Shown here piece by piece: positions 1 through 45,566 of a stretch of 64,000 bases of DNA. How positions within the stretch are numbered: position 1 is the stretch's first letter; each line of letters opens with the position of its first letter. Source of the DNA: Desarmillaria ectypa (lineage: Eukaryota; Basidiomycota; Agaricomycetes; Agaricales; Physalacriaceae); NCBI GenBank assembly GCA_030407005.1, contig JAUDYN010000003.1, positions 868,001 to 932,000 of the forward strand, given 5' to 3'. A model generated the notes under the pieces. The model did no database searches, was not told the DNA's origin, and worked only from the letters and a program-made list of their open reading frames with translations. A program made the translations under genes and the position numbers.

Positions 1-206
1 GGTTGCTCTTGACCGACATAGCCGAGTCCGAGCCAGCCGAGCCGAGCCAAACCGGAATTGCTATGACCACGAATCCCTTTACTGAGACTCCTTTCTCTCG
101 TTCACTCTTATCCATTCTTTTCTTTTCCCCAATCTTCTTCGTCTGGCTGGCCCCGGACTTTCTTCGACTTTCTTTCATTTTATTATCACTTTCATTCGAC
201 TTAATC

Positions 207-2287
207 ATGGGAGAAAGCTGTTTTCGCAGGGAGTTTCTCAACCCAAAGAGGCTGGCCTTCAATGTCGTTTTCTATGGAATTCATTTTGCGCTCTTTGGTT
301 ACGGCTGGCATAGCCAGGTGCGTGTACTTACCCTCTATTTATTCCATAATCTTATTCCTGCAGGCCACCAGCACCAAACTCGCTGCCCTCAACGCCCTGA
401 CTTGGTCCGTGTGGACTTCTCGCGGTGCTGGCCTCGTTCTGGCATTCGATGGTGGCATGATTCTCGTTCCCATGCTAAGAAACGTCATTCGCTTTGTTCG
501 CCCAAAGCTTACTTGGCTCTTACCCGCCGACGAGAATATCTGGTTCCACAGACAAGTCGCTTATTCTATGGCATTTTGGGCCATGGTCCACACAACGGCG
601 CACTATGTCAACTTTTTCAATGTCGAGCGCTCTCGTACGTTCTCTCATGCCACCTGATTGCTAGTTGCTAAATCCTGGTACAGAGGTTCGAAAGCAGACT
701 GCTCTGGACATACACTATACCCAGGCGGGTGGTATCACCGGTCACTTCATGCTCCTCATCATGGTCTTGATGTATGGGACCGCTCACCAGAAAATCCGCA
801 AGCAATGCTTTGAGGCATTCTGGTACACCCACCACCTTGCCTTCTTCTTCATGATCGGTCTCTACACTCACGCTACGGGATGTTTTGTCCGTGACTCAGT
901 CAATCCCGATTATATCGGTACATTCCCGTTCTACTCCACTGAACATTGTCTGGGGTATAATAGCTGGAGGTTTACAATTTGGCCCGGAATCATCTACTTT
1001 GGTGAACGTGTGTTTCGTGAATGGCGTGCTAGACGTGCCACTCGGTTGTCCAAAGTTCTTGTACACCCAAGCGGTACGTAGGACATTCTTCTTCGATCTT
1101 GTCATGTGCTTATACTCTTCCAGGCGCCATGGAGCTGCGTATCATCAAGCCTAGTTTCAAGTATACACCTGGACAGTGGTTGTTCCTTCAGGTTCCAGAA
1201 CTTTCACGCTTTCAATGGCATCCTGTGAGTTCCGGACATCATGGTGCCATCCCACGGCTTATCTAAACGTGAACTAGTTCACCATCACATCAGCACCAGG
1301 AGATCCTTATGTGTCTGTCCACGTACGGCAAGTGGGTGATTTCACGATGGGGCTAGGGGAGCGTCTTGGTGTTGGTCCGTCTGTGGTCAGTACGATGACC
1401 CAGGCGGCCATGAAGGGCTCATATAAAGACGAAAAGTCCGACTTGGGGTCCCGAGGTGATTACCTCGAATTAGATGGATCCGACTCTCTCCCCGCTGTCC
1501 GGATTGATGGGCCATATGGTGCTCCAGCGGAGGATGTATTCAATGCCGAGGTAGCCGTACTCGTTGGTGCTGGTATCGGTATGTGACTCTCTTTTTAACA
1601 AGAAGAGCTTTTCTAACTCCCATCGACCAGGCGTAACACCGTTTGCTTCAATTTTAAAGCACATATGGTATAAACAGAGAAGCGGCAACCTCGGCGCCCT
1701 GCGTCGAGTCGAATTCTTCTGGGTTTGCCGCGATGCGCCGTCATTTGGGTGGTTCCAAAGCTTACTGCAGGAAGTTGAAGCTGCTCAAGCGGATCGTGAG
1801 TTAAGCTGCTCTTGACATTGAGCATCAATTCATATTCATTTCTAGCCAACTTCCTTCGCATCAATATCTATCTTACTCAGAAAATTGGGGAAGATATGCT
1901 TTGGAATATCGCGGTCAACGATGCCGGTGCTGCCTACGATCCCCTGACACTCCTCAGGACCCGGACCATGTTCGGTCGTCCCGATTGGATGTCTATCTAT
2001 GGACAGATGAAGCAGGCTATTGAAGCAGGACAATACATTCCCGGTTCAAAGTCGCAATTGAAGACCAAGGTCGCTGTAAGTAATCGTCTTTCTATCATCA
2101 CCTTGTGCCTTGCTTAGACAAGTGTAGACTTACTTCTGTGGACCGGGTGCCATCGCGAAAGTGCTCAAGGAGGCAACGATGCACCACAGTTCATCCTCCG
2201 TCAACTTCACCTTTGCAAAGGTTTGCAGCTTTCAATGTTGGTCATACCTTACTCTGATTGTTCTCTTCATGACAGGAACATTTCTAA
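207..2287 (+). CDS. noxA: NADPH oxidase catalytic subunit, NoxA/Nox1 class
   Basis: Membrane flavocytochrome that passes electrons from NADPH via FAD and two haems to oxygen, making superoxide; in fungi this class supports differentiation and fruiting (family knowledge). Nine exons read cleanly: 207-317, 364-634, 684-1073, 1124-1224, 1278-1578, 1631-1795, 1846-2075, 2128-2220, 2276-2287, giving 557 residues, the normal NoxA length. Seen in order: a first membrane segment, haem-region histidines (WFHRQVAYSM, HTTAHYVNFF, FWYTHH), the FAD motif HPFTIT, NADPH-site motifs DGPYGAP, GAGIGVTPF, FFWVCRD and FCGPG, and the typical end FTFAKEHF. There is no EF-hand extension, so it is not the NoxC type. 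ATG 207 is preferred because homologues begin shortly before the RLAFNVVFYG segment. An in-frame ATG at 63 would add 48 residues from pyrimidine-rich, leader-like DNA. It converges on the MAPKKK gene that ends at 2506. Confidence 0.96.
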
Positions 2288-2505: not shown

Positions 2506-4879
2506 TTACCTAATCACGAGCTCTTCTATGCGACCTCCCCAAAGTGTGGTACTCCTCTTCAGCCGACATTCTGGGTCAGACAAATTGCGATTCAGCTGCT
2601 CCTGAGCAACCATTCGCATCGACTTCCTTATATGGCGGTCTTTAGGTTGGCTCGCAACCGTATCTGCCTTAACGACGGGTCGATCGACATCATGCCTCGG
2701 GAAATAGTAGTCTAGATGCTGGTAAACGTCCTCAAGGTGTGGCCGGTGCCAGCTTTCGATTCGGCTCAGCGGTACAGAAGCCTTTTTGTCTGAATGAGAG
2801 AGAGGTGAAGGTGGGGATGGGAGAGGCCGGGCACCAATCGGCGGCTTTTGCCAGAGCGAGCTACCAAAGTCGCTAGTATCACCGGACGATAATGTGCTAT
2901 AACTGGTTGAGGCAGATGTTAGTGCTGATGCAGGCGAGATAGATGGGGAGTGCTGTGGATAATGTGTGTTGAGGTGGAGCGGATTTGGAGCTGTGAGAGT
3001 TGAGGAAAAGGGAGGCTCGATGTCTGCGCTCGGGAGGGGCGGTGGGCGGTAAATGTAAGGCGACTTTGAAGATTGGCGCCGCCGAATGCTTCTTTCGTCG
3101 TTTGAATCGTCTGAATCAGGATTGACGACGTGGAACATTTTTCGGCGTTGATATGACGATTTCGATGAATCGGATGTTGCTGCCCAGTTGAATACTTGAT
3201 CATCGTCTTCAGGAGTAGAGCCGAATGCCGATTTCATAGGTGAACCTGGAGGAGTGATAAACACAAGCGGAGGCGGTCTGCTAGAATCAGGGTTAGCGGG
3301 AAGCACAGCTTCGGATGCATTTCTGAAGTGCGTATGCTGATGGTTGGTAGGTCTCCGACCCGGTGCAGATGAGCTGGAAGGTCTCCGTAACATTCGTGAA
3401 GTAGATCGTCGCGACGACGTTTTCTCTTCTGGAACAGCAAGTCGAGCAGCGTCTTGCTTTTGAGAGGAAAGGAGCTTTTCTGGGGGGCGCTTGATCTCAG
3501 CTTGAGTGAACGACCAGCCGGACACTGGAGTCAGATAGGGATGCTTCCGGAGTTCTGCGGCCATGGGACGCTCAGCCGGATTACTAGACCGTAGTACAGT
3601 TAACCGAATGTTGAAAGAATATAGGGTTACGTACGTAGCAAAGCAGCTATCCCTAAAGGATAACGCTAGCTTTGATAGATGTAAATCCTTTGGGATGGGG
3701 GGCGGAAGCTTGTCTTTATGAAGCTACAATTGGTCATGAGCGTGCCAAAATGACAACCAGTGTGACAGAACTAACTTTGAGCATTACTGCAATAGTCTCT
3801 TGGCCAGCCCAAGGTCGCTTGCCAGACCACATTTCCAGCACGATACACCCGACACTCCAGATGTCGACCTTCACGTCATATCCACCATTCTTAGGAGACA
3901 CGACTTCCGGAGCCATCCAGAACACAGTGCCCTTCAAGCTCGTATTTGCACGCGCTTCCAACTGGTCGACGCGCTTGGATATTCCAAAGTCAGAGATCTT
4001 GCAAATCCCTGAGTGATCAACCAGAATATTGGCTGTGATATAACCATGAGCTTAGTACATAGCTTGAAACGCGAAGGAGGCGCACCTGCTTTGAGATCCT
4101 GGTTGTGTGGCTGTTAGTATATAGTATCGCGCTCAAAGAAATGACAACCCACTCGATGTATAATTCCTCTACAGTGGAGATACTCCAAACCTTCCAAGAT
4201 CTGACTTGTGAATGACTTTGTCAGACCTTCACTAAACCTGCCGTGCTGGAAAAGACAGCTTTCTATTGTTCCTCCAGGGACATATTCCAAGAAACTTGAA
4301 TTAGTCAGCAGAAGCTACGACTGAAAGTTGGTGACTCACATGTTAAGAGACTCAGGGCTCTCTTCGTAACCCAGATAACGGACGATGTAGGGATGGTCCA
4401 AGTCTTGGAGAGTTTTGCTCTCAAACTTGAGGGCTCTAGCCATTTCTATCTGCTGGTTCGTTGGTGCAAACTGCGTCTTGGGCAATTCGACTTGCTTGAC
4501 AGCTATTATTTCTCCAGTATTGGCATTGCATCCCAAGTACACACAACCATAACTTCCTCTCCCGATTGGCTCCCCCCGTATCCATCGGAATATGGCTGCT
4601 GTAAATAAGGGCAAGGGTTCAGCCCAGCACCGATGAAACATGTCAGGACGCACGTTTCGGTGGGGGAGAGTTTTGAGGCGTGCGTGCTGCTTGTCGTTGG
4701 GGCTTGCTGGGGTTGGCATTGCCTACAAAATTCTTCGCATGAAGAGCTAACCTTCAAAGGAAAAGGAAAGACGACGTACACCCTAGACCTCTATTCGTAA
4801 GATAAGCAGAAACCCGTGTCGCTGGCGAGGAGGAAGACCTGCATGCTTCAGTCCTGCTTGGAGTAGATTGAGGATTCAT
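2506..4879 (-). CDS. Bck1-like MAPKKK with permuted domain order (kinase first)
   Basis: Protein serine/threonine kinase of the Bck1/cell-wall-integrity MAPKKK type. The kinase domain lies at the N-terminal side: glycine loop GRGSYGCV, lysine motif AVKQVE, HRDLKAANIL, DFG, MAPE, and it ends at NPAERP..ELRKHPYL. It is followed, in one frame with no stop, by a Ser/Pro-rich linker and then by blocks FHVVNPDSDD, EDVYQHLDYYFPRHD, KSMRMVAQEQ and RSTTLWGGRIEE just before the stop. In the canonical paralogue at 39351-43831 these same blocks precede the kinase. Kinase introns match the paralogue in position, including HR|DLKA and the phase-2 intron before NP.ERP. All catalytic residues are present, so an active enzyme is likely. 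The RA-like domain of the paralogue is absent. The first exons are uncertain: ATG 4879 is a candidate, with a join into a frame ending PNSPPPK before the kinase. More 5' sequence toward 5030 could belong. Confidence 0.85.
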
Positions 4880-5237
4880 GACCGGTGACTACAGTGACCA
4901 GTAGCAGATCAACAGGCAAGAATCGTTACCGCATGAAACACGGAGAAGGTGCTTAGGTCCTGATGGAAATCTGTTTCGAACTCTGATGGATTTGGCCACG
5001 TCGCGACGAGATCCATCATCCTATTGGCGTACAAGAAATTCGGATCACGTCGAAGGTGTCCACGCCGACTGCGGGATGCTGGCAGTCTCAGCCTGGGATT
5101 GCTGATGATGCGTATCATGGAAGCCAGAAAGGAAGAAAGAAGGGACCGAAAATCAGTGTAAACAGTCAGAGCCCTTCGCCAAACAGTTCCAAATCCAGAC
5201 GCGTTCAACCTCCCTTGCCACTGGCTCCCCGCGTCAA
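4880..5237. promoter_or_regulatory. Divergent promoter region, permuted MAPKKK / Nup170
   Basis: About 358 bases between the likely start of the leftward kinase gene and ATG 5238 of the rightward nucleoporin gene. An open frame on the minus strand runs from 5283 to 4909 and could splice (donor near 4933, acceptor near 4891) into the kinase reading frame, so part of this stretch may be extra 5' coding sequence of the kinase. I see no clear TATA element. Confidence 0.4.
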
Positions 5238-8200
5238 ATGGCTGCTGCCTTTGCCAGCTCGTCCTCCTCTTCTTCCCTTCCAACGGGGCCCGGTTTGTTT
5301 ACTTATAAGATCTATTACAACTCGCTTACAAACCTCTCTAGTTGATCTTACCGTTCTGCAAAGTGCGAGCCGTGTTTTACATGAACAATTCGCCACAGAT
5401 GTTCAAATTATTCCCGACCTCAGCGACACACTGAATACCCGTAAAGTGATATCTTCCATATTTCTAGGCCTCTTGTAACGTTCCTATCCAGAGGCTGGGC
5501 CAGCACTGTATAGCACCTTCGATGACGATTTTCGTGTTCCTTTTCAAAAGAGAAAACTTGTGGGAATCCCTGATGCGTTGTTCCAGCATTATAGCAGTAT
5601 GTCTCTAGGATCCTTACCAGTCCACCGCTAACTTTCCAACCAGATACAAATGTCAACACTCGCATGGGCTTGATGCCTGAAATTGAACGGACATGGATCT
5701 CGGTTGAAAATAAGTTGCTGCTGTGGGATTACGTAGAGGGGTGCGTGTGCTTCTTGATCTATAGTGCTCACAATTCAAACTTCTTGCCAGTAATGAAATA
5801 AGTTCATTTGAGGACCAGCCCTACGTGATCTCCAATGTCGCACTTGTCAAACCCAAAAAGGGATTGTTCATCGACGAAATATCCTACCTGTTGGTGATAT
5901 GCACGCCAATGACTGTCGTTCTAATTGGGGTTGCTCTGTCTCCAGGAGTGAAACGGAAAACACTCCAGTTGTATGCCACTGACTTGATCGTGAATACCGA
6001 CACCCAAATGTCATCAGTCATAGGCACTCCCGACGGACGAATATTCATGGCTGGGTCTCACGATGGGAGCCTATACGAGCTTCATTATCAAGCCACAGAA
6101 TCGTGGTTTGGAAAACGCGTTCAACTAATAAATCATTCCGTTGGTGGAATGCAAAGTCTTATTCCCCGTTTTGTGTCATCAAATGTGGAAGGCACGTATA
6201 TTTTGTTATGATCTGCAACCGTGATTATAATGGTGTTCAGATCGTATCGTTTCCCTCGTCTCTGACGACGCCCGACGCTGTTTCTACACTCTCACTGAGA
6301 AAAACGCAATAGCTGTTTACAAGCCAACTTCCGACAAATCTGTGGAACATGTTCAGACATTATCAGGCCTGTATAAATCTATTCAAGATAAAGTACCTGG
6401 CGCTCCTTCCGTCACACCTCAGAATTTCCGAATCATTTCCATTCATCCTGTCGATGTTTCAGAATCTCGTTCGGGTATCCAACTTGTCGCAGTAACATCT
6501 ACGGGTGTACGCCTATATTTTGCCCCAGCAATTGCTTATTCGTCTTCGTTTGGGGGTTATTCATCCACCAGCAGCGGCGTTCGTCCCCTTCAGCTCTTCC
6601 ATGTGCGAACACCTCCAACCACTATATCACATCCTGACGAGCAAGAGCCAACTTTCCGACAACCGGTGGCAGCGTATGGTACGGTACCGACACCTACCCG
6701 ACAACAGGGACGCACGTTTACCTTCACGGGTCTTGACGTCAGCTGCTATATTGATGGGTTGACAGTGGCCGCTCAGGAAACAGATGTCGATGGAAAAGAC
6801 TTTCTTCTATGCATGTCACCAGACTTGACGCGAATTGGGAATCTGGACCAGATAGTTACGAATACCCAATCTGCGCAGCGATACGGTGCTGTGGGTGCTC
6901 CAAGTGGCAGTAACAGGGCGCCTTTGATCGAATATGCCGCGCTGTTAGCTATTCCAGGGAGGACTTGGGCCATGGCACCCGTTCCCCGGAATTTACCAAA
7001 TTGGGAGACAGGTTTGCCTGCACCGGTGGTTACGAACGAATTGGCGTCACAGTTTGTCGAAAGCCCTCCAGAAATCATGATTCTTACCAATGTCGGGCTG
7101 ACTTTCCTCATGAAGAGACGGGCGCTAGACTACCTCAAGGCTGTTATCGAGGAGGTACAGTCAGAGGGTAACGTTCAACCCCTCATCGAGTTCAGGGACA
7201 GGTAAGATGCAAGTGAATCTTCCCGTCTGCCAGGCTTAACAGACTCTCTAGTTTTGGGCGCAATCAGACATGTACTATGCTCCTTGGTCTCGCAAGCGGC
7301 AACTCGTTTTTGGACACGACAGAGAGCGCCTCTCTTGCCGTCTCCCCTCCTGACATTGCTGCTGTGGCCAAGCAAGCGTTTTATGACTTTGGAGAGCGGC
7401 CTATATGGTCGGAGCGGATGGTTTATGGCAGTATGCTTCATCTTTTTTCCCTTTTGCGTTCATTTCTCACCAGCTGTTAGACGAGGCTCAAGGGAAAGCT
7501 CTTTACAGCGGTCGTAGGGAAGGGTTTGCTCTCTACTTCGCCCGCCTCGTCAGGCGAATATGGAAGTCGAAACTGACGCGTACAAGGTAGATCAATACTC
7601 TTTGAATGATGCTGTCGCTCATAACGTTTTTCTTAGTGCCTCTGGTGTTCACGAACCGACTGTATCAGAAGCCGTACTAGTCACTGTCCAGAAGAACCTA
7701 TACTCATTGAAAGACCTTTTGGATAGAAATCCTCATTTATTCCATTCATCGCCGGGTGATACGGCGGTCCGTGCTTCTGCAGCAGAACAGCAGGCTTGGA
7801 AGGTGAATGATACTTACTCTTTGTCTTTCTGCCGTTACCGACATGTGACAGGCCGAACAAAGTTCCGTAGTTGAGCTTATGTCGTTGTTGACACGGACTA
7901 TTGAAGCTCTCTCGTTCATCCTTCTATTGACCGACTACCGTATCGGCGATCTCATTACAAGGTATGTCTTCCCTAGAGCTGCCGATTATCAGACTTAAGT
8001 TGTACCAGATGCGAAGCCGATGTCCAGAACATGTTCAAAGCGCTAACATTTGAAGACCTGATAACCACCCAAAATGGAATGACAGTGTCAAGAGCTTTAG
8101 TTAATGTTGTTATCGATCAGCAAATTGGTCAACAACTGAGCGTGAGCATTATCAGCGATCTTTTATCTCCCCTGCGTAGCTGATACATACTTAGGTTGAT

Positions 8201-39071: not shown

Positions 39072-39350
39072 TGGGGTCGGTGGTAACTGTGTGGTGTAAA
39101 GTAGTAGAATGACGTCACAGCGTAATTACTAGGACATTAATAGATGGCTACAAATGGTTACCGATGGGACTATACTAAACAAATGACATGAACGACAACG
39201 AAGAGATGTGTAGGAGTAGCAAGAAGGATGAACAGATGAATGTGCGAATGGATGAGCGATAGATGCGCAGTGGAGAGAGAACGTGGAGATGAGAGTGAAA
39301 AGACAATGTTCAGAGGCGAAGGAAACCAGTAATGGATATCCTAGTTAAAT

Positions 39351-42300
39351 CCAGTAAACTGCCAGTCAGGATCAAGTGCTAAATATTTATGTTTCCGCAG
39401 TTCCTGTGAGGATGGACGTTCCTCGGGATTTCTAGTTGTGTATTGTTAGCAAATACAGTAAAAATCAAAAATGGGCCTACATTGCGAAGCATTTCTTGCG
39501 GAAATCATCAGCAAGGTCTGACAGGATGATGCCTTCAGGTACGGGAGGTGGCTGCTTCAACTGATAAAGCTGATCGGAAACATCAATCGAGTGCCACTGA
39601 AAAGGATCCATGAAATACTACCTTAAACATAACAGCGACCATCTCATCTCCCTGCCACGGTCTTGTTCCCGCCCACATCTCCAGAACGACACAGCCGACA
39701 CTCCAGATGTCAACTTTGAAGTTGTATCCCTTGCCTTGCGGATTGACGACCTCAGGAGCCATCCAAAATACGGTTCCCTGCATGGCAGTTTCCGCGCCGC
39801 CACTTCTATCGTCCGTCCGCTTTGAAATCCCGAAATCCGAAATCTTACAAACGCCCGACATCTCTACGAGAATATTGTCAGCCTTTAGATCCTGTAATGA
39901 TGTTAGTAGCGCTCTTCGACTGTCGAAACATGAGTGACTGACCCGATGAAGAATCCCTTTTGAGTGAAGGTACTCTAAACCACCAAGGATCTGTCTAGTG
40001 AAAGATCTCGTAACCTCTTCGCTAAATCTGCCGTGCTTCAAAAGACAGCTTCCAATAGAGCCACCAGGAACGTATTCCAAAAAGCTGTTGAGAAGTGATC
40101 AGCTAGGTGCAGAGAACGCAAAAATTTTCGCTGACGCACATGCTTAGATTTGAGGGTGTTTCCTCGAATCCCAAGTACTGCACTATGTTTGGATGATCCA
40201 AGTCTTTCAACGTTTCGCTCTCAAGCTTCAACGCTTGAACTACAGTAACTTGTCGGGAATCATTCTTGTCACTCGTGGTCCTCGGGATTTCGACTTGTTT
40301 AACGGCAATCATCTCCCCCGTCGTGGCATTAAGAGCAAGATAAACGCGTCCGTACGTCCCTCTACCGATCAATTCTCCTCGGACCCATTTGAAAGTAGCT
40401 GTAAAGGAATCAGTTTAGCTATGTAAAATAGGTGTTGTTGAATACTAACTCGGACCGCCAGAGGGTGATTCGGGAGAAGGTCCACCCATATTTGCTCGGG
40501 CTTGTGCTGTAGTAACCTCTTCCAGCCGACTGCCCCACAGTTTTGTGCTTCTTTTGCGTAATACACTCGAAGCGAAGGAAGAGTCTGCTTTGGAGGTGCG
40601 ATTGATCCGCCGTTTGTGCTCCTCAGCTACATGCCGAATTGACTTCTTTCCTTTGACACGCGACTTCTCAGTCATTAATGGAATAGGAGGCACAGCAATA
40701 GATGCCGGTTCGGGACTGATTTCCACAATTTGTTCTACAGTTGTAGGTGAGGTACCACCAGAGTTCGCCTCGATAACAGGCTTATCCAAGTCATGTTCCG
40801 GGAAGAAATCCTCCAGGCGCTCATAGACATCCTCCGGAGGTGGGCGAGTGTCAGTAAAAGTGCTTCCTCTTCCTCTTGTCTTTAGCTTCGCTGTCTGTGA
40901 TGAAGACACAGGAGTTGACTGCGAGCCACTGGACTGAGAGGACTGGACTGTTACGCTGGGAATAGGAATAGTACTTGGCGTAGTATCCAACGTCAAGAAG
41001 GGCTTCTTCCATGTACCGGAGTCCGCGTGGTCACTGTCCGAGTCGTCACCACTGGAGCTGTTATAAAACTCCATAGATGACATCTCCAACGATGGCTTGG
41101 AATTAGGAAGGAAAGATGATGTTTTATCTCGGCGAAGAGGTGGTACAACTGTACTTTCCGCTTGATCCGGATCTACTTGGAGAAGCCATGCACGTTTGTC
41201 TGTCCCCAGGGTAGATTCTGAAGATGCATCACAGGGCATGCCTACTGCCGTCCCCGATGAAGTCTCAGCACTGCTCGTCAGCATTCTTTGGCGTGTTGAT
41301 CTTGGGCTATGCGGACTGATGGGACTTTGCGGTGGAGACTTTGTGGCGGTATCAGTGTGAACATCCCGAGAGCTATTATAGAACCGCGTAGGACCAGAGA
41401 GGGGCAGGGAAGGCGCGGGAGGAGAACGTGCTGAGTCTGGATATTCCATCGTGTTAGAATATGATGGCGTTGGCCGCTGGTACTTGTTTGTCGGAGACGT
41501 CATAGGAGTCCTGACATCGCTGAGAGCCGAAACCGGTCTTGGGAATGGGTCTTGGCTGGGTGACATGTAACCTCCCGGATATCCAGTTGTTCTGCCATTA
41601 TACTGCGAAGAGCGCTGGGATGGACCTTGGACCGGCAGGGGTTTAACAGGTGTCCGCGACTCATAAGGCTTAGCTCCGGACATGAAAGGAATATTTCCGT
41701 TTGTTCTATTCATAGAGGTCTGTCCATTATGACGTCGAGGCATGCCAGGCTGCAACGTAGCAGGATGTCCGCCATTGAAGGCGGCAGCCCGAAGGTTATC
41801 CATGCTCTTGGCACCTGTTCTGATGGGTCTCCAAGGGTCGGTGGATGAGGTAGGGGTACCAGTCGACTTTTGGTCAGCCTTCTCTTCACCTTTCCAAGTT
41901 ACGACGTAGGTTGAAGGTACAGGTTGACCGGCCGCACGACTCGTTCCGGGACTACGAATCTCGGGAGATGCATGAGGTACAGGCGGCGGAGGATGACGCG
42001 GAGGAGCCGGCACTACTATAGGGCGACCTGATTGCGTAGCTTTGTATCGTGAGGGATACAATGGATTTTTGACTCGGCACTGCTTTGGCGACTGGCGGGG
42101 AGGCGGGGAGGTCGGGATCTCCTGATCACGGGGAACGACGACCCAAGATTCTGGGCGGGCCAGATTTTCATCTAGGTCCCGTCGTTGTGGTTCGAGCCTT
42201 CCCCTTACACGGCGTTCTTTTGATTGGAGATTATCTCGAGATGGCTGATGGTCAAGGCTGCCTTGTTGACTTTGCCACTGCCGACCTGCCGTCTCGAAAA

Positions 42301-43831
42301 TTTGTTCTGCCGCTCTCAATGCTTGCTCTCTTTCGGCAGCAGCATCAGATCCAGAACGCCCATGAGTTCGTGTGGCGGGAGGGATCAGGCTATTGTCATC
42401 AAAGGTGGTGCTGAGAGGGGATAGAGGTGGTGGTGCGGATGATAGAGGCGGAGGAGGGGGTGGAGCTGGGACAAGGTTTCCGTACCAATTGACAAATTGT
42501 TTTGCCTCACTTTGTCCGCCGGTTGGAGGAGAGGGTGTAGTTGAGCGGGGAGGTATGAGGGGAGAAGAAGGTCGGGCAGGAGCACTCGGGCGACGTCCGG
42601 AGGAGGGCGGAACGGCAACAGCGCTGGTTATAGTATTGAGATGTGGGTGGGGAGGTGGGCGCATGGTTGTTCTATGATTATCGGCGTCAACGTCAGCATC
42701 ATAAGCAGCGGCTTGTTCTGTAGGTATCTGCTCGCTAGCTGAGGACAGACTTCCATGGCGCGAACGAGATCGTCGTCGCGGCCTTAGAGGTGCACAAGAT
42801 GGTAGGACAGGAGGAGGTACAGTGTTGACACTGGGAGAAAGTGAGCTCGGTAATGAGGGTGTAGCTTCATGTACAGGCGCAGACGAATGCGAGACAAGAA
42901 GCTTCAGCGTCCCTTTGGAATCGCCAAACTCTCGACAGAGTTCAAACAACTTTGCATCTGTCAGCGCGTCGCCAATAGCAAAGGCACCTATTTCGGTGCG
43001 ATAAATAGAAAAGCGAGACTGCTCATCATCGTCAATGTGTAACTATATAGAGCTAAGTATTCGTGTAGACATCAGAGTTAACGGATCACACACCTTGGAG
43101 AAGACACACTCTCGAATGACCGCTGCACTCTGTACCCCACTTATGTCAACATTGACATAGGTATCAGAGTCTGCTGTAGCAAGAATAGAGACTTTATCCG
43201 AAACTGTGGTGGTAGAGCTATGGCTAGAAGTGGAAGTATAAGAGTCGGGAGTAGAAACAGTAGGCGACTATGAGTAGATCATCAGTGTTATGAGGGAAAC
43301 TAAAACAAGGCCACGCACTGTATTGACTGGTGGTGGGGCAGGCGGTACAGGCTGAGGTCGAGTATGAAGAGATCTGTGTTGAAAAGGTGACTTGAGCTGC
43401 TGAAAGATCTTGCCGGTGACGTTACGAGAAGTGGAGATATGGATATCGTTCCGCCCACTTCGGTCATTATTATACGATACGATAGTGGGATCCTGCTGAG
43501 GTAAAAAATCGGTAGAAAGATCCACAGGAGGTATTGGAAGGCCTGGGGTGCTTGGGGGCGGGGTCGACTCATCGGCGGCTGGGGAACTGGTACTGGACGG
43601 CGATGAAAGAGACTGGTGAGATGCCTGGGAACGAGGAATACGGGGTGCCATGTTTGTCGTCAAAGGAGAAGGCGCCGGTGGAGGAGACTTGGGAACATTA
43701 GGAAGTGGCGCGCGGCGATGGTAGGGATTGACATTAGTGGGCCTATCTTCTTCACTGCTCTCCGAATCAGAGCCGGGATTGACGACATGGAAAGTAAGGC
43801 GCGGCTTGGGAAACCTAGGTAGCTCTGACAT
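39351..43831 (-). CDS. BCK1: Bck1-type MAP kinase kinase kinase, canonical order
   Basis: MAPKKK of the cell-wall-integrity pathway (Pkc1 to Bck1 to Mkk to Slt2 in yeast). ATG 43831 opens MSELPRFPKPRLTFHVVNPG. An RA-like region follows (LHIDDDEQSRFSIYRTEIGA, AKLFELCREFGDSKGTLKLL), then a long Pro/Ser-rich stretch with many proline runs, and blocks EDVYERLEDFFPEHDLDKPV, KSIRHVAEEHKRR and RSTKLWGSRLEEV. The kinase then reads FKWVRGELIGRGTYGRVYLA, AVKQVE, HRDLKADNIL, KISDFGISKR, TVFWMAPEV and DIWSVGCVVLEMWAGTRPW, ending NPEERPSSQELRKHKYL and WQFTGFN (stop 39351). The huge exon 40445-42949 has no intron. It is the paralogue of the permuted gene at 2506-4879. Open frame continues upstream of 43831 with other in-frame starts, but MSEL is the best match to the block order. 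Confidence 0.92.
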
Positions 43832-44307: not shown

Positions 44308-45359
44308 TCATTCCGTGTTCCCCACCTTGGGAAATTCTGCTCTTGGCTCCAGCATCGTCTCACCCCAGCTGAGTAACTTCAAGAGACCCACTAGCTTCAC
44401 TTCCTTGCCTTGACTCAGGCTCTCCAAAATCGCTGCATTCACCTCCCCAGCTGTTTTCAGACGCTGCGCGGGTGATAAAAGATCCGAAATTGACGTGGGC
44501 GTTGACGACGTCGACTCGAATGCCAAGAGTGCCATAGTTCGTTCCAACTCAGTTAGAAATTCGGGGCTCTCCTCACCACGAGGAGCTAATTCCTCCTGCG
44601 CAAATCGAAGAGCATCGGCAATCCGCCCATGTCTTATAAACTCTATCAGTTTCTGTTGTTGTAAATGAAAGTATAGCGCTGGATTGGTATCCAGTATCTG
44701 TAGAGCGCATCAATGATTGCCCGTCTAATACAAGTATGCAGAAAATGAAAAAGCTCATATTGAAGACTGAAGTTTTTGGTTGAGTCTCCTCACTGACCCG
44801 AAGGTCTGAGAGTGGTGCATGAAAAGTTTAATCTTGTGATCCCTGCCGAGGGGAACTTGACAGAAAAAAACACACACCTCCGGATTGAGATCGTTGACGC
44901 GAGTGATAGCATCTTCCACGTCACCACGTTGTAGAGCTTCACGAATACTCATTCGGCTCTCAATGCTTTCAAAGTCTACGGGCGGCGTCAGATTGGCCTC
45001 TTGGCTAAATTCCTCGGCAGCGGATTTGTAGCCTTCAATAACGAGGTAATCCATGATGAGGCGGTTAAGGTCCCTGCCAAGTAAAATCGTCAATTCTCCA
45101 GTAACGAAAGGAGAAACCGTAGAATTAATCAGATAATAAAAGTAATTCTTTGCGCTCATCAAAGAAGTCAGAGAGATTCCCATTGATTTTATCATCATAG
45201 AAGAGATACAGAGAATAAGGACTCACGTTTTGGATACCTGAACCTCGTGCATACGGCGGTCCCATTCTTCCTCGCGTATTCGTAGCTTCGATGTGGACGT
45301 AGGTGCAGACTGCTGGATCAAGTCAATGCTGGTCACGAATGTGCCCACTAACTCACCAT
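44308..45359 (-). CDS. GID8: GID/CTLH ubiquitin ligase subunit Gid8 (LisH-CTLH-CRA)
   Basis: Core scaffold subunit of the GID/CTLH E3 ligase, which in yeast degrades gluconeogenic enzymes. Domains: REEEWDRRMHEVQVSK, LisH (DLNRLIMDYLVIEGYKSAAE), CTLH (MSIREALQRGDVEDAITRVN), and CRA (ALYFHLQQQKLIEFIRHGRI, ADALRFAQEELAPRG, LERTMALLAFE), ending PRAEFPKVGNTE at 44308. The likely start is an unusual three-base exon: ATG 45357-45359 is followed at once by an intron (GTGAGT, ending GATCCAG) and then QSAPTSTSKLRIREEEW, the family N-terminus. No other in-frame ATG exists before MHEVQV. Length, about 235 residues, matches the family. It is divergent from the nitrilase gene with 207 bases between starts. 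Confidence 0.9.
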
Positions 45360-45566
45360 GGAGAAAACGAGGGAATGAAAAATTTCGTCCTTTTATGGCT
45401 ATCCAACTCGGTTGGTTTAGGGCAGGTCAAGCGACATTGGTCCGGACCGGTATTTGATCCGGTTACCTGCCTGAGGGTGTCACGACATTATCTCGCTATC
45501 CCGCCGGCAAAAGGCACATACTGCAGTCCCAATGCCCGGATTCTTTCTTTGTCACCCTCAGCTTCA

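What the first reader, a model, noticed from the sequence alone, without database searches (positions are those of the whole stretch)
2506..4879. A MAPKKK with circularly permuted domain order beside its canonical paralogue
In the canonical Bck1-type gene at 39351-43831 the order is FHVVNP block, RA-like domain, EDVYERL..FFPEHD block, RSTKLWG block, then kinase. In this gene the kinase comes first and is followed in the same open frame by FHVVNP, EDVYQHL..YFPRHD, KSMRMVAQEQ and RSTTLWGG blocks, then a stop. The kinase C-lobe joins the tail across a clean GT-AG phase-2 intron. At least four kinase intron positions match the paralogue, so the copy arose at DNA level, not by retroposition. All kinase motifs are intact and no frame is broken. 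The N-terminal regulatory blocks have become a C-terminal tail, and the RA-like domain is gone. That would change how autoinhibition and upstream activation work. A tandem duplication followed by loss of the first N-terminus and last kinase would explain it. I do not know of a described MAPKKK with this arrangement.
Basis: partly seen in the sequence, partly recalled or inferred. Interest (0 to 1): 0.88.

Follow-up and report, generated by a model that had tools for sequence, protein, structure and literature searches.

The report
Mushroom stress kinase with swapped halves
A signalling kinase of the honey-mushroom relative Desarmillaria ectypa carries the control region that normally sits in front of the kinase behind it instead, and the same swapped protein turns up in many gilled mushrooms, so it is an old second version of a known fungal stress kinase and a natural test of how such kinases are switched off.

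Summary
The window is from Desarmillaria ectypa (exact protein match). At 4879-2506 (-) a Bck1-type MAPKKK has its kinase first, then, in the exon that also encodes the end of the kinase, the blocks FHVVNP, WxKP, EDVY..FP.HDxD, KSxR and LWG, in the order they have in the N-terminal half of the canonical paralogue at 43831-39341 (-). The RA-like domain is absent. It is not a local accident: of 126 sequences examined 63 are kinase-first, 58 canonical, 1 partial, 4 tail fragments. The 60 kinase-first proteins with an organism name are from Agaricales genera (Armillaria, Mycena, Amanita, Schizophyllum, Coprinopsis and others); the 33 named from other orders are canonical, but only the best 120 of 5083 matches were listed. 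One tree branch (100/99) separates the two orders, so one origin is likely. Unbroken kinase-plus-tail frames on short contigs suggest one spliced transcript. Most likely: a second cell-wall-integrity MAPKKK without RA input whose tail still folds back on the kinase. Architecture shown; mechanism inferred. No description seen in ten literature searches.

The parts
2506..4879 (-). Permuted Bck1-type MAPKKK gene: exons 4879-4780, 4722-4654, 4598-4340, 4294-4153, 4098-4086, 4032-3776, 3723-3635, 3583-2509, stop 2508-2506
   Evidence: Exon chain reproducing public protein P0001; the split of 3723-2509 by a 51-nt intron inferred from relatives
3499..4593 (-). Protein kinase domain (P0001 residues 59-355)
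   Evidence: Profile match; A.K, HRD, K, N and DFG columns invariant in the 59 permuted proteins aligned, of 63
3584..3634 (-). 51-nt in-frame GT-AG intron, phase 2, inside the kinase C-lobe; kept as coding in public protein P0001
   Evidence: 17 residues absent in 9 of 9 aligned relatives; same position and phase as the canonical last intron
3238..3264 (-). VFITPPGSP motif with two proline-directed S/T sites, seen only in the permuted family
   Evidence: I[TS]PP.SP in 45 of 63 permuted, a relaxed form in 48 of 63, relaxed form in 0 of 58 canonical sequences
3118..3135 (-). FHVVNP block (N-terminal block of the canonical protein)
2839..2853 (-). WQKPP block (canonical TWKKP)
2671..2733 (-). 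EDVY..YFPRHDVDRPVV block
   Evidence: 51.5 bits against the canonical N-terminal half, 0 of 1000 shuffles as high; ordered in the model of relative P0003
2596..2625 (-). KSMRMVAQEQ block
2509..2556 (-). RSTTLWGGRIEELVIR block at the C-terminus
39341..43831 (-). Canonical Bck1-type MAPKKK, 8 exons, 1376 aa
43775..43792 (-). FHVVNP block of the canonical protein
42881..43198 (-). RA-like domain of the canonical protein, split by an intron; no counterpart in the permuted gene
   Evidence: Profile of canonical proteins finds it here and in 0 of 63 permuted proteins; weak PF14847 match in two canonical relatives, below cut-off
41000..41047 (-). TWKKP block of the canonical protein
40766..40846 (-). 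EDVYERL..FFPEHDLDKP block of the canonical protein
40607..40654 (-). KKSIRHVAEEH block of the canonical protein
40511..40555 (-). RSTKLWGSRLEEV block of the canonical protein
39353..40396 (-). Kinase domain of the canonical protein (residues 1095-1373)

Best explanation
A naturally circularly permuted paralogue of the cell-wall-integrity MAPKKK Bck1/Mkh1, probably formed once, near the base of Agaricales, by a duplication that put the kinase of one copy in front of the N-terminal regulatory half of another (tandem copies, or a circular intermediate), with loss of the RA-like domain. Shown here: order of the parts, homology of the blocks, wide conservation, intact catalytic residues, linkage in this genome. 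Inferred: it is an active MAPKKK; the relocated EDVY-KSxR-LWG module folds back on the kinase from the C-terminal side and restrains it, as an N-terminal region is thought to do in Bck1 (recalled); input through the RA-like domain is lost; the tail gained a conserved TPPxSP site that a proline-directed kinase such as the downstream MAPK could phosphorylate. It probably feeds the same MAPKK-MAPK pair (Mkk1-Slt2 type) from a different input.
For: Order and homology. Introns. 63 kinase-first and 58 canonical among 126 sequences examined; sources name two of the kinase-first proteins mkh1 (P0022) and BCK1/SLK1/SSP31 (P0085). One branch between the two orders: 99 in a quick tree of 121 rows, 100/99 in a careful tree of 99 rows, 100/99 in a reduced tree of 77 rows. 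Catalytic columns invariant in 59 aligned of 63 permuted. Unbroken kinase-plus-tail frames on short contigs: P0003 675 aa/3045 nt, P0028 642 aa/2318 nt, P0016 714 aa/4913 nt. Identical listed contig lengths for both genes in 6 of 8 species. AlphaFold2 model of P0003: mean pLDDT 93 and 87 for residues 601-620 (EDVY), 70-89 for 631-675, while 21 of 23 ten-residue blocks between 361 and 590 are under 50; canonical P0103: 80 and 83 over EDVY.
Against: No expression or activity data seen. Docking on the kinase is inferred from confidence values; no coordinates or error matrix were available, and in the canonical model KSIR has 62-79 and LWG only 34-40. Three of 63 kinase-first proteins lack the EDVY-LWG match (P0052, P0057, P0086). 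A loose pattern for the FVVN motif fits 32 of 63, although the profile of that region matches all 63. My simple patterns for AVK and HRD fit 47 and 60 of 63; the alignment shows the key residues conserved, but it left out 4 of the 63. The permuted kinase evolves faster: mean identity 63.5% against 83.4% over the same 45 pairs of 10 species picked for having both forms, lower in 45 of 45, so relaxed constraint or another substrate is possible. Linkage outside this genome rests on equal contig lengths only; M. floridula and M. olivaceomarginata differ.
Confidence: 0.7

Rival explanations
1. The tail has kept its blocks but no longer regulates the kinase: an unrestrained or scaffold-bound MAPKKK in which the blocks only bind partners (MAPKK, MAPK, scaffold).
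For: No RA-like match in 63 permuted proteins; faster kinase evolution; the KSxR block resembles a basic-hydrophobic MAPK docking site (recalled consensus, not tested).
Against: The EDVY block is modelled as ordered and keeps near-invariant residues.
Confidence: 0.25
2. The permuted gene is older than Agaricales and was lost, or not listed, in other orders.
For: All canonical proteins, from several orders, form one side of a branch, 100/99; only the best 120 of 5083 matches were listed.
Against: In a reduced tree (long, unplaced and redundant rows dropped by me) permuted and Agaricales canonical rows together stand opposite 13 non-Agaricales canonical rows, 97/90; none of 33 named non-Agaricales proteins listed is kinase-first. 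The single Ste11-type outgroup is too distant to root the tree.
Confidence: 0.2
3. Convergent fusion: a kinase gene fused with a separate gene that carried the tail blocks, not a permutation of one ancestor.
For: Four tail-only database entries exist (P0006, P0010, P0011, P0013).
Against: P0006 and P0011 begin inside the kinase C-lobe, so they look like last-exon fragments; P0010 and P0013 were not traced. The five blocks stand in canonical order, and the kinases are sisters of canonical Bck1.
Confidence: 0.04
4. Assembly or annotation artefact joining two genes.
For: Public model P0001 does contain an apparent error, a retained 51-nt intron.
Against: Kinase end and tail share one open exon here and one open frame in P0006 and P0011; same order in 63 proteins.
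Confidence: 0.01

Closest known systems
Bck1/Mkh1-type MAPKKK (canonical cell-wall-integrity MAPKKK)
   Same: Kinase domain (181 of 290 aligned residues identical in this genome), intron positions, EDVY, KSxR, LWG, WxKP and FVVN blocks
   Different: Blocks follow the kinase instead of preceding it; RA-like domain and most of the long linker gone; TPPxSP motif added; about half as long
Lineage-specific BCK1 copies of the Fusarium oxysporum complex (PMC6001611, passages seen)
   Same: Extra BCK1 copies that have lost part of the N-terminus
   Different: Described there as about 800 aa shorter, missing part of the N-terminus; the passages seen mention no moved blocks
Ste11/Byr2-type MAPKKK
   Same: Related kinase; a weak EDVY-like stretch before the kinase in this genome's Ste11-type gene (7.9 bits, E 0.27; best of 1000 shuffles 5.9, 844 gave a score)
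   Different: Kinase comes last; distant in the tree. The name Ste11 for this gene is by eye
MAPKKKs with an N-terminal kinase such as plant NPK1/ANP1 and animal TAK1 (recalled, from no call)
   Same: Kinase first, regulatory tail after it
   Different: Their tails are not known to me as the relocated N-terminal half of a paralogue

Membership tests
Bck1-type MAPKKK | Kinase domain groups with Bck1 and not with Ste11 | tested here: met
   with one Ste11-type row as outgroup; best non-self match in the own genome is the canonical paralogue
Bck1-type MAPKKK | Catalytic residues intact | tested here: met
   Invariant columns in the 59 of 63 permuted proteins aligned
Bck1-type MAPKKK | EDVY, KSxR and LWG regulatory blocks present | tested here: met
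   for this gene; profile match in 60 of 63 permuted proteins
Bck1-type MAPKKK | Regulatory half in front of a C-terminal kinase | tested here: not met
Bck1-type MAPKKK | RA-like domain | tested here: not met
   0 of 63 permuted proteins match; the profile matches 5 of 58 canonical sequences, the five it was built from, most other canonical entries being short at the N-terminus
Bck1-type MAPKKK | Phosphorylates Mkk1/2-type MAPKK downstream of Pkc1 | not testable with these tools
   Needs biochemistry or genetics
Circularly permuted protein | Same parts in rotated order in one chain | tested here: met
   Five blocks in canonical order after the kinase; incomplete, as the RA-like domain is missing
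Circularly permuted protein | One transcript joins the parts | tested here: inconclusive
   Unbroken frames on short contigs suggest cDNA; reads not seen

The most novel reading that the evidence does not exclude
Gilled mushrooms have kept, since near the origin of Agaricales, a second cell-wall-integrity MAPKKK whose autoinhibitory module works from the opposite end of the kinase and which, having lost the RA-like domain, is wired to a new input with phosphorylation feedback through the TPPxSP site. It would show that MAPKKK autoinhibition depends on the docking module and not on its place in the chain.
Probability: 0.35. Interest if true: 0.82.

Novelty: new variant of a known kind. Interest (0 to 1): 0.72.

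Why it matters
MAPKKKs such as Bck1 and Ste11 are commonly described as kinases held off by an N-terminal regulatory half (recalled). Here evolution has carried out the rotation experiment and kept the result in many mushroom genera, including two laboratory models (Coprinopsis cinerea P0056, Schizophyllum commune P0122). That makes the question whether the regulatory module works regardless of position directly testable, and it means that mushroom stress-pathway annotations that expect one Bck1 may miss a second, RA-less one.

Tried and rejected
A profile-profile comparison of the two alignments reported only the kinase, as expected for a permutation. The PDB fold search gave ordinary kinases, best ASK1. 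A tree holding the permuted rows together with six canonical rows near the window's own (CANON, P0089, P0103, P0107, P0119, P0120) was not rejected (p-AU 0.142), so the exact branch of origin is open. Considered and rejected: two genes, assembly error, retroposition (introns kept), chance similarity of the blocks.

Rows dropped: one search dropped 4 tail-only fragments before classification, and the partial kinase P0015 before the tree. Alignment A2 left out 4 of the 63 kinase-first proteins (P0008, P0052, P0057, P0086). One search dropped 23 of 121 rows chosen by me, mostly near-duplicates, and added one outgroup. One search dropped 44 of 121 rows, among them long permuted rows such as Coprinopsis, Psilocybe, Schizophyllum and Hymenopellis, and had no outgroup; its Agaricales canonical set of 16 holds one unnamed row (P0089).

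Full report
Identity and gene models. A search with the tail frame returned a 100% match, P0001, a 685-aa 'kinase-like domain-containing protein' of Desarmillaria ectypa, family Physalacriaceae, order Agaricales. P0001 maps onto 4879-2506 (-) as seven exons with GT-AG introns. It keeps 17 residues of a 51-nt in-frame intron (3634-3584) that are absent in the 9 other aligned relatives. The canonical paralogue at 43831-39341 (-) splices to 1376 aa. A search of the own genome with P0001 gave 66 matches; only the gene itself covers the tail, and the best other kinase matches are the canonical paralogue and a gene that I call Ste11-type by eye.

Is the permutation real? Profiles built from permuted tails were run against the canonical N-terminal 1090 residues and 1000 shuffles of them. 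EDVY to LWG as one profile: 53.7 bits, best shuffle 8.1 (393 gave a score). Single blocks: EDVY 51.5, LWG 20.2, KSIR 12.1, WKKP 10.9 and a short FVVN profile 6.4 bits, each above all shuffles (241 to 608 of 1000 gave a score). Two longer FVVN profiles did not separate from shuffles (1 and 73 of 1000 as high), so that block rests mainly on the canonical Mycena protein P0095, which matches it at residues 4-44 with E 8e-7. The blocks lie in canonical order. The TPPxSP motif of the tail has no counterpart in the canonical protein here (480 of 1000 shuffles as high); its relaxed pattern occurs in 48 of 63 permuted and 0 of 58 canonical sequences.

Introns. The canonical kinase region has five introns. 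The permuted gene has all five in the same phase, four at the identical residue and one a residue away, plus one extra after DLKA and one in the N-terminal leader. The copy was therefore made at DNA level.

How widespread? A profile of ten permuted proteins gave 5083 matches at E <= 1e-10, of which the best 120 were listed. With the earlier hits and the canonical window protein, 126 sequences were examined for the positions of kinase and EDVY-LWG matches: 60 kinase-first with the block, 3 kinase-first with only the TPPxSP/FVVN region, 58 canonical, 1 partial kinase, 4 tail fragments. Of the 63 kinase-first proteins 60 carry an organism name, from genera that I know as Agaricales; ten species were looked up and are Agaricales.

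One origin. The canonical rows are one side of a branch in a quick tree of 121 rows (58 canonical, support 99) and in a careful tree of 99 rows (41 canonical, 57 kinase-first, one outgroup; 100/99). In a reduced tree of 77 rows, 48 permuted plus 16 Agaricales canonical rows stand opposite 13 non-Agaricales canonical rows, 97/90. This fits an origin near the base of Agaricales. It is not settled: grouping the permuted rows with only six canonical rows near the window's own is not rejected (p-AU 0.142), and the outgroup is too distant to root the tree.

Linkage. In this genome the genes lie 34.5 kb apart on the same strand. In the listing both genes have the same longest-contig length in 6 of the 8 other species with contig data for both (M. 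alexandri, M. galopus, M. maculata, M. citricolor, Dendrothele bispora, Schizophyllum amplum; not M. floridula or M. olivaceomarginata). S. commune was not counted because the two entries do not name the same strain. No remnant of a further copy was found between the genes by profiles of kinase, tail blocks and RA-like domain in six frames of the window.

Transcript. P0003, P0028 and P0016 are unbroken frames of 642 to 714 aa joining kinase and tail on contigs of 2.3 to 4.9 kb. An entry that shares their source tag but lies on a 369-kb contig, P0011, begins in what looks like an intron, so I take these frames to be called without splicing and the three to be cDNA contigs. The reads were not seen.

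Mechanism. Key catalytic columns are invariant in the 59 permuted proteins aligned, of 63, so activity is likely. An RA-like profile matches 0 of 63 permuted proteins; it matches 5 of 58 canonical sequences, those it was built from, because most canonical entries are short at the N-terminus. In the AlphaFold2 model of P0003 (59 sequences) residues 601-620 (EDVY) have mean pLDDT 93 and 87 and residues 631-675 (KSxR, LWG) 70-89, while 21 of 23 ten-residue blocks from 361 to 590 are under 50. In the canonical P0103 model EDVY has 80 and 83, KSIR 62-79, LWG 34-40. pTM is 0.61 in both; for the 675-residue permuted model with 274 residues under pLDDT 50 that seems high for a kinase alone, by my own rough estimate. 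This is consistent with docking in cis and does not prove it. Between species the permuted kinase is less conserved than the canonical one in 45 of 45 pairs of 10 species picked for having both forms (means 63.5% and 83.4%; pairs not independent).

Literature. Ten searches of the held library listed no title or abstract start that describes a permuted MAPKKK or a second Bck1 in mushrooms; several listings showed only the best 12 to 25 of many papers. Beyond listings I saw passages of PMC9031059, PMC6001611 and PMC13117471 (a Flammulina study with one transcript annotated BCK1). Most subscription journals are not held, so absence from print is not shown.

Noticed in passing
window 3584-3634: Public D. 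ectypa protein P0001 keeps a 51-nt in-frame intron as 17 coding residues inside the kinase C-lobe, apparently an annotation error.
   Followed up: yes
window 205-2280 (+): Gene with ferric-reductase-like transmembrane and FAD-binding matches (NADPH-oxidase-like by eye) converging on the permuted kinase gene.
   Followed up: partly
window 5237-8000 (+): Nucleoporin gene (Nucleoporin_N match at 6231-7205) divergent from the permuted kinase gene; its outer limits are by eye.
   Followed up: partly
window 44308-45380 (-): LisH and CTLH matches, GID8-like by eye, just upstream of the canonical kinase.
   Followed up: partly
L013 288-1439: The Ste11-type gene of the same genome has a stretch RPPSELITNHLTEYFPF resembling the EDVY block (7.9 bits, E 0.27), perhaps an older shared MAPKKK regulatory motif.
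   Followed up: partly
P0052, P0057, P0086: Three Mycena kinase-first proteins match the TPPxSP/FVVN region but not the EDVY-LWG block: real loss or truncated gene models.
   Followed up: no
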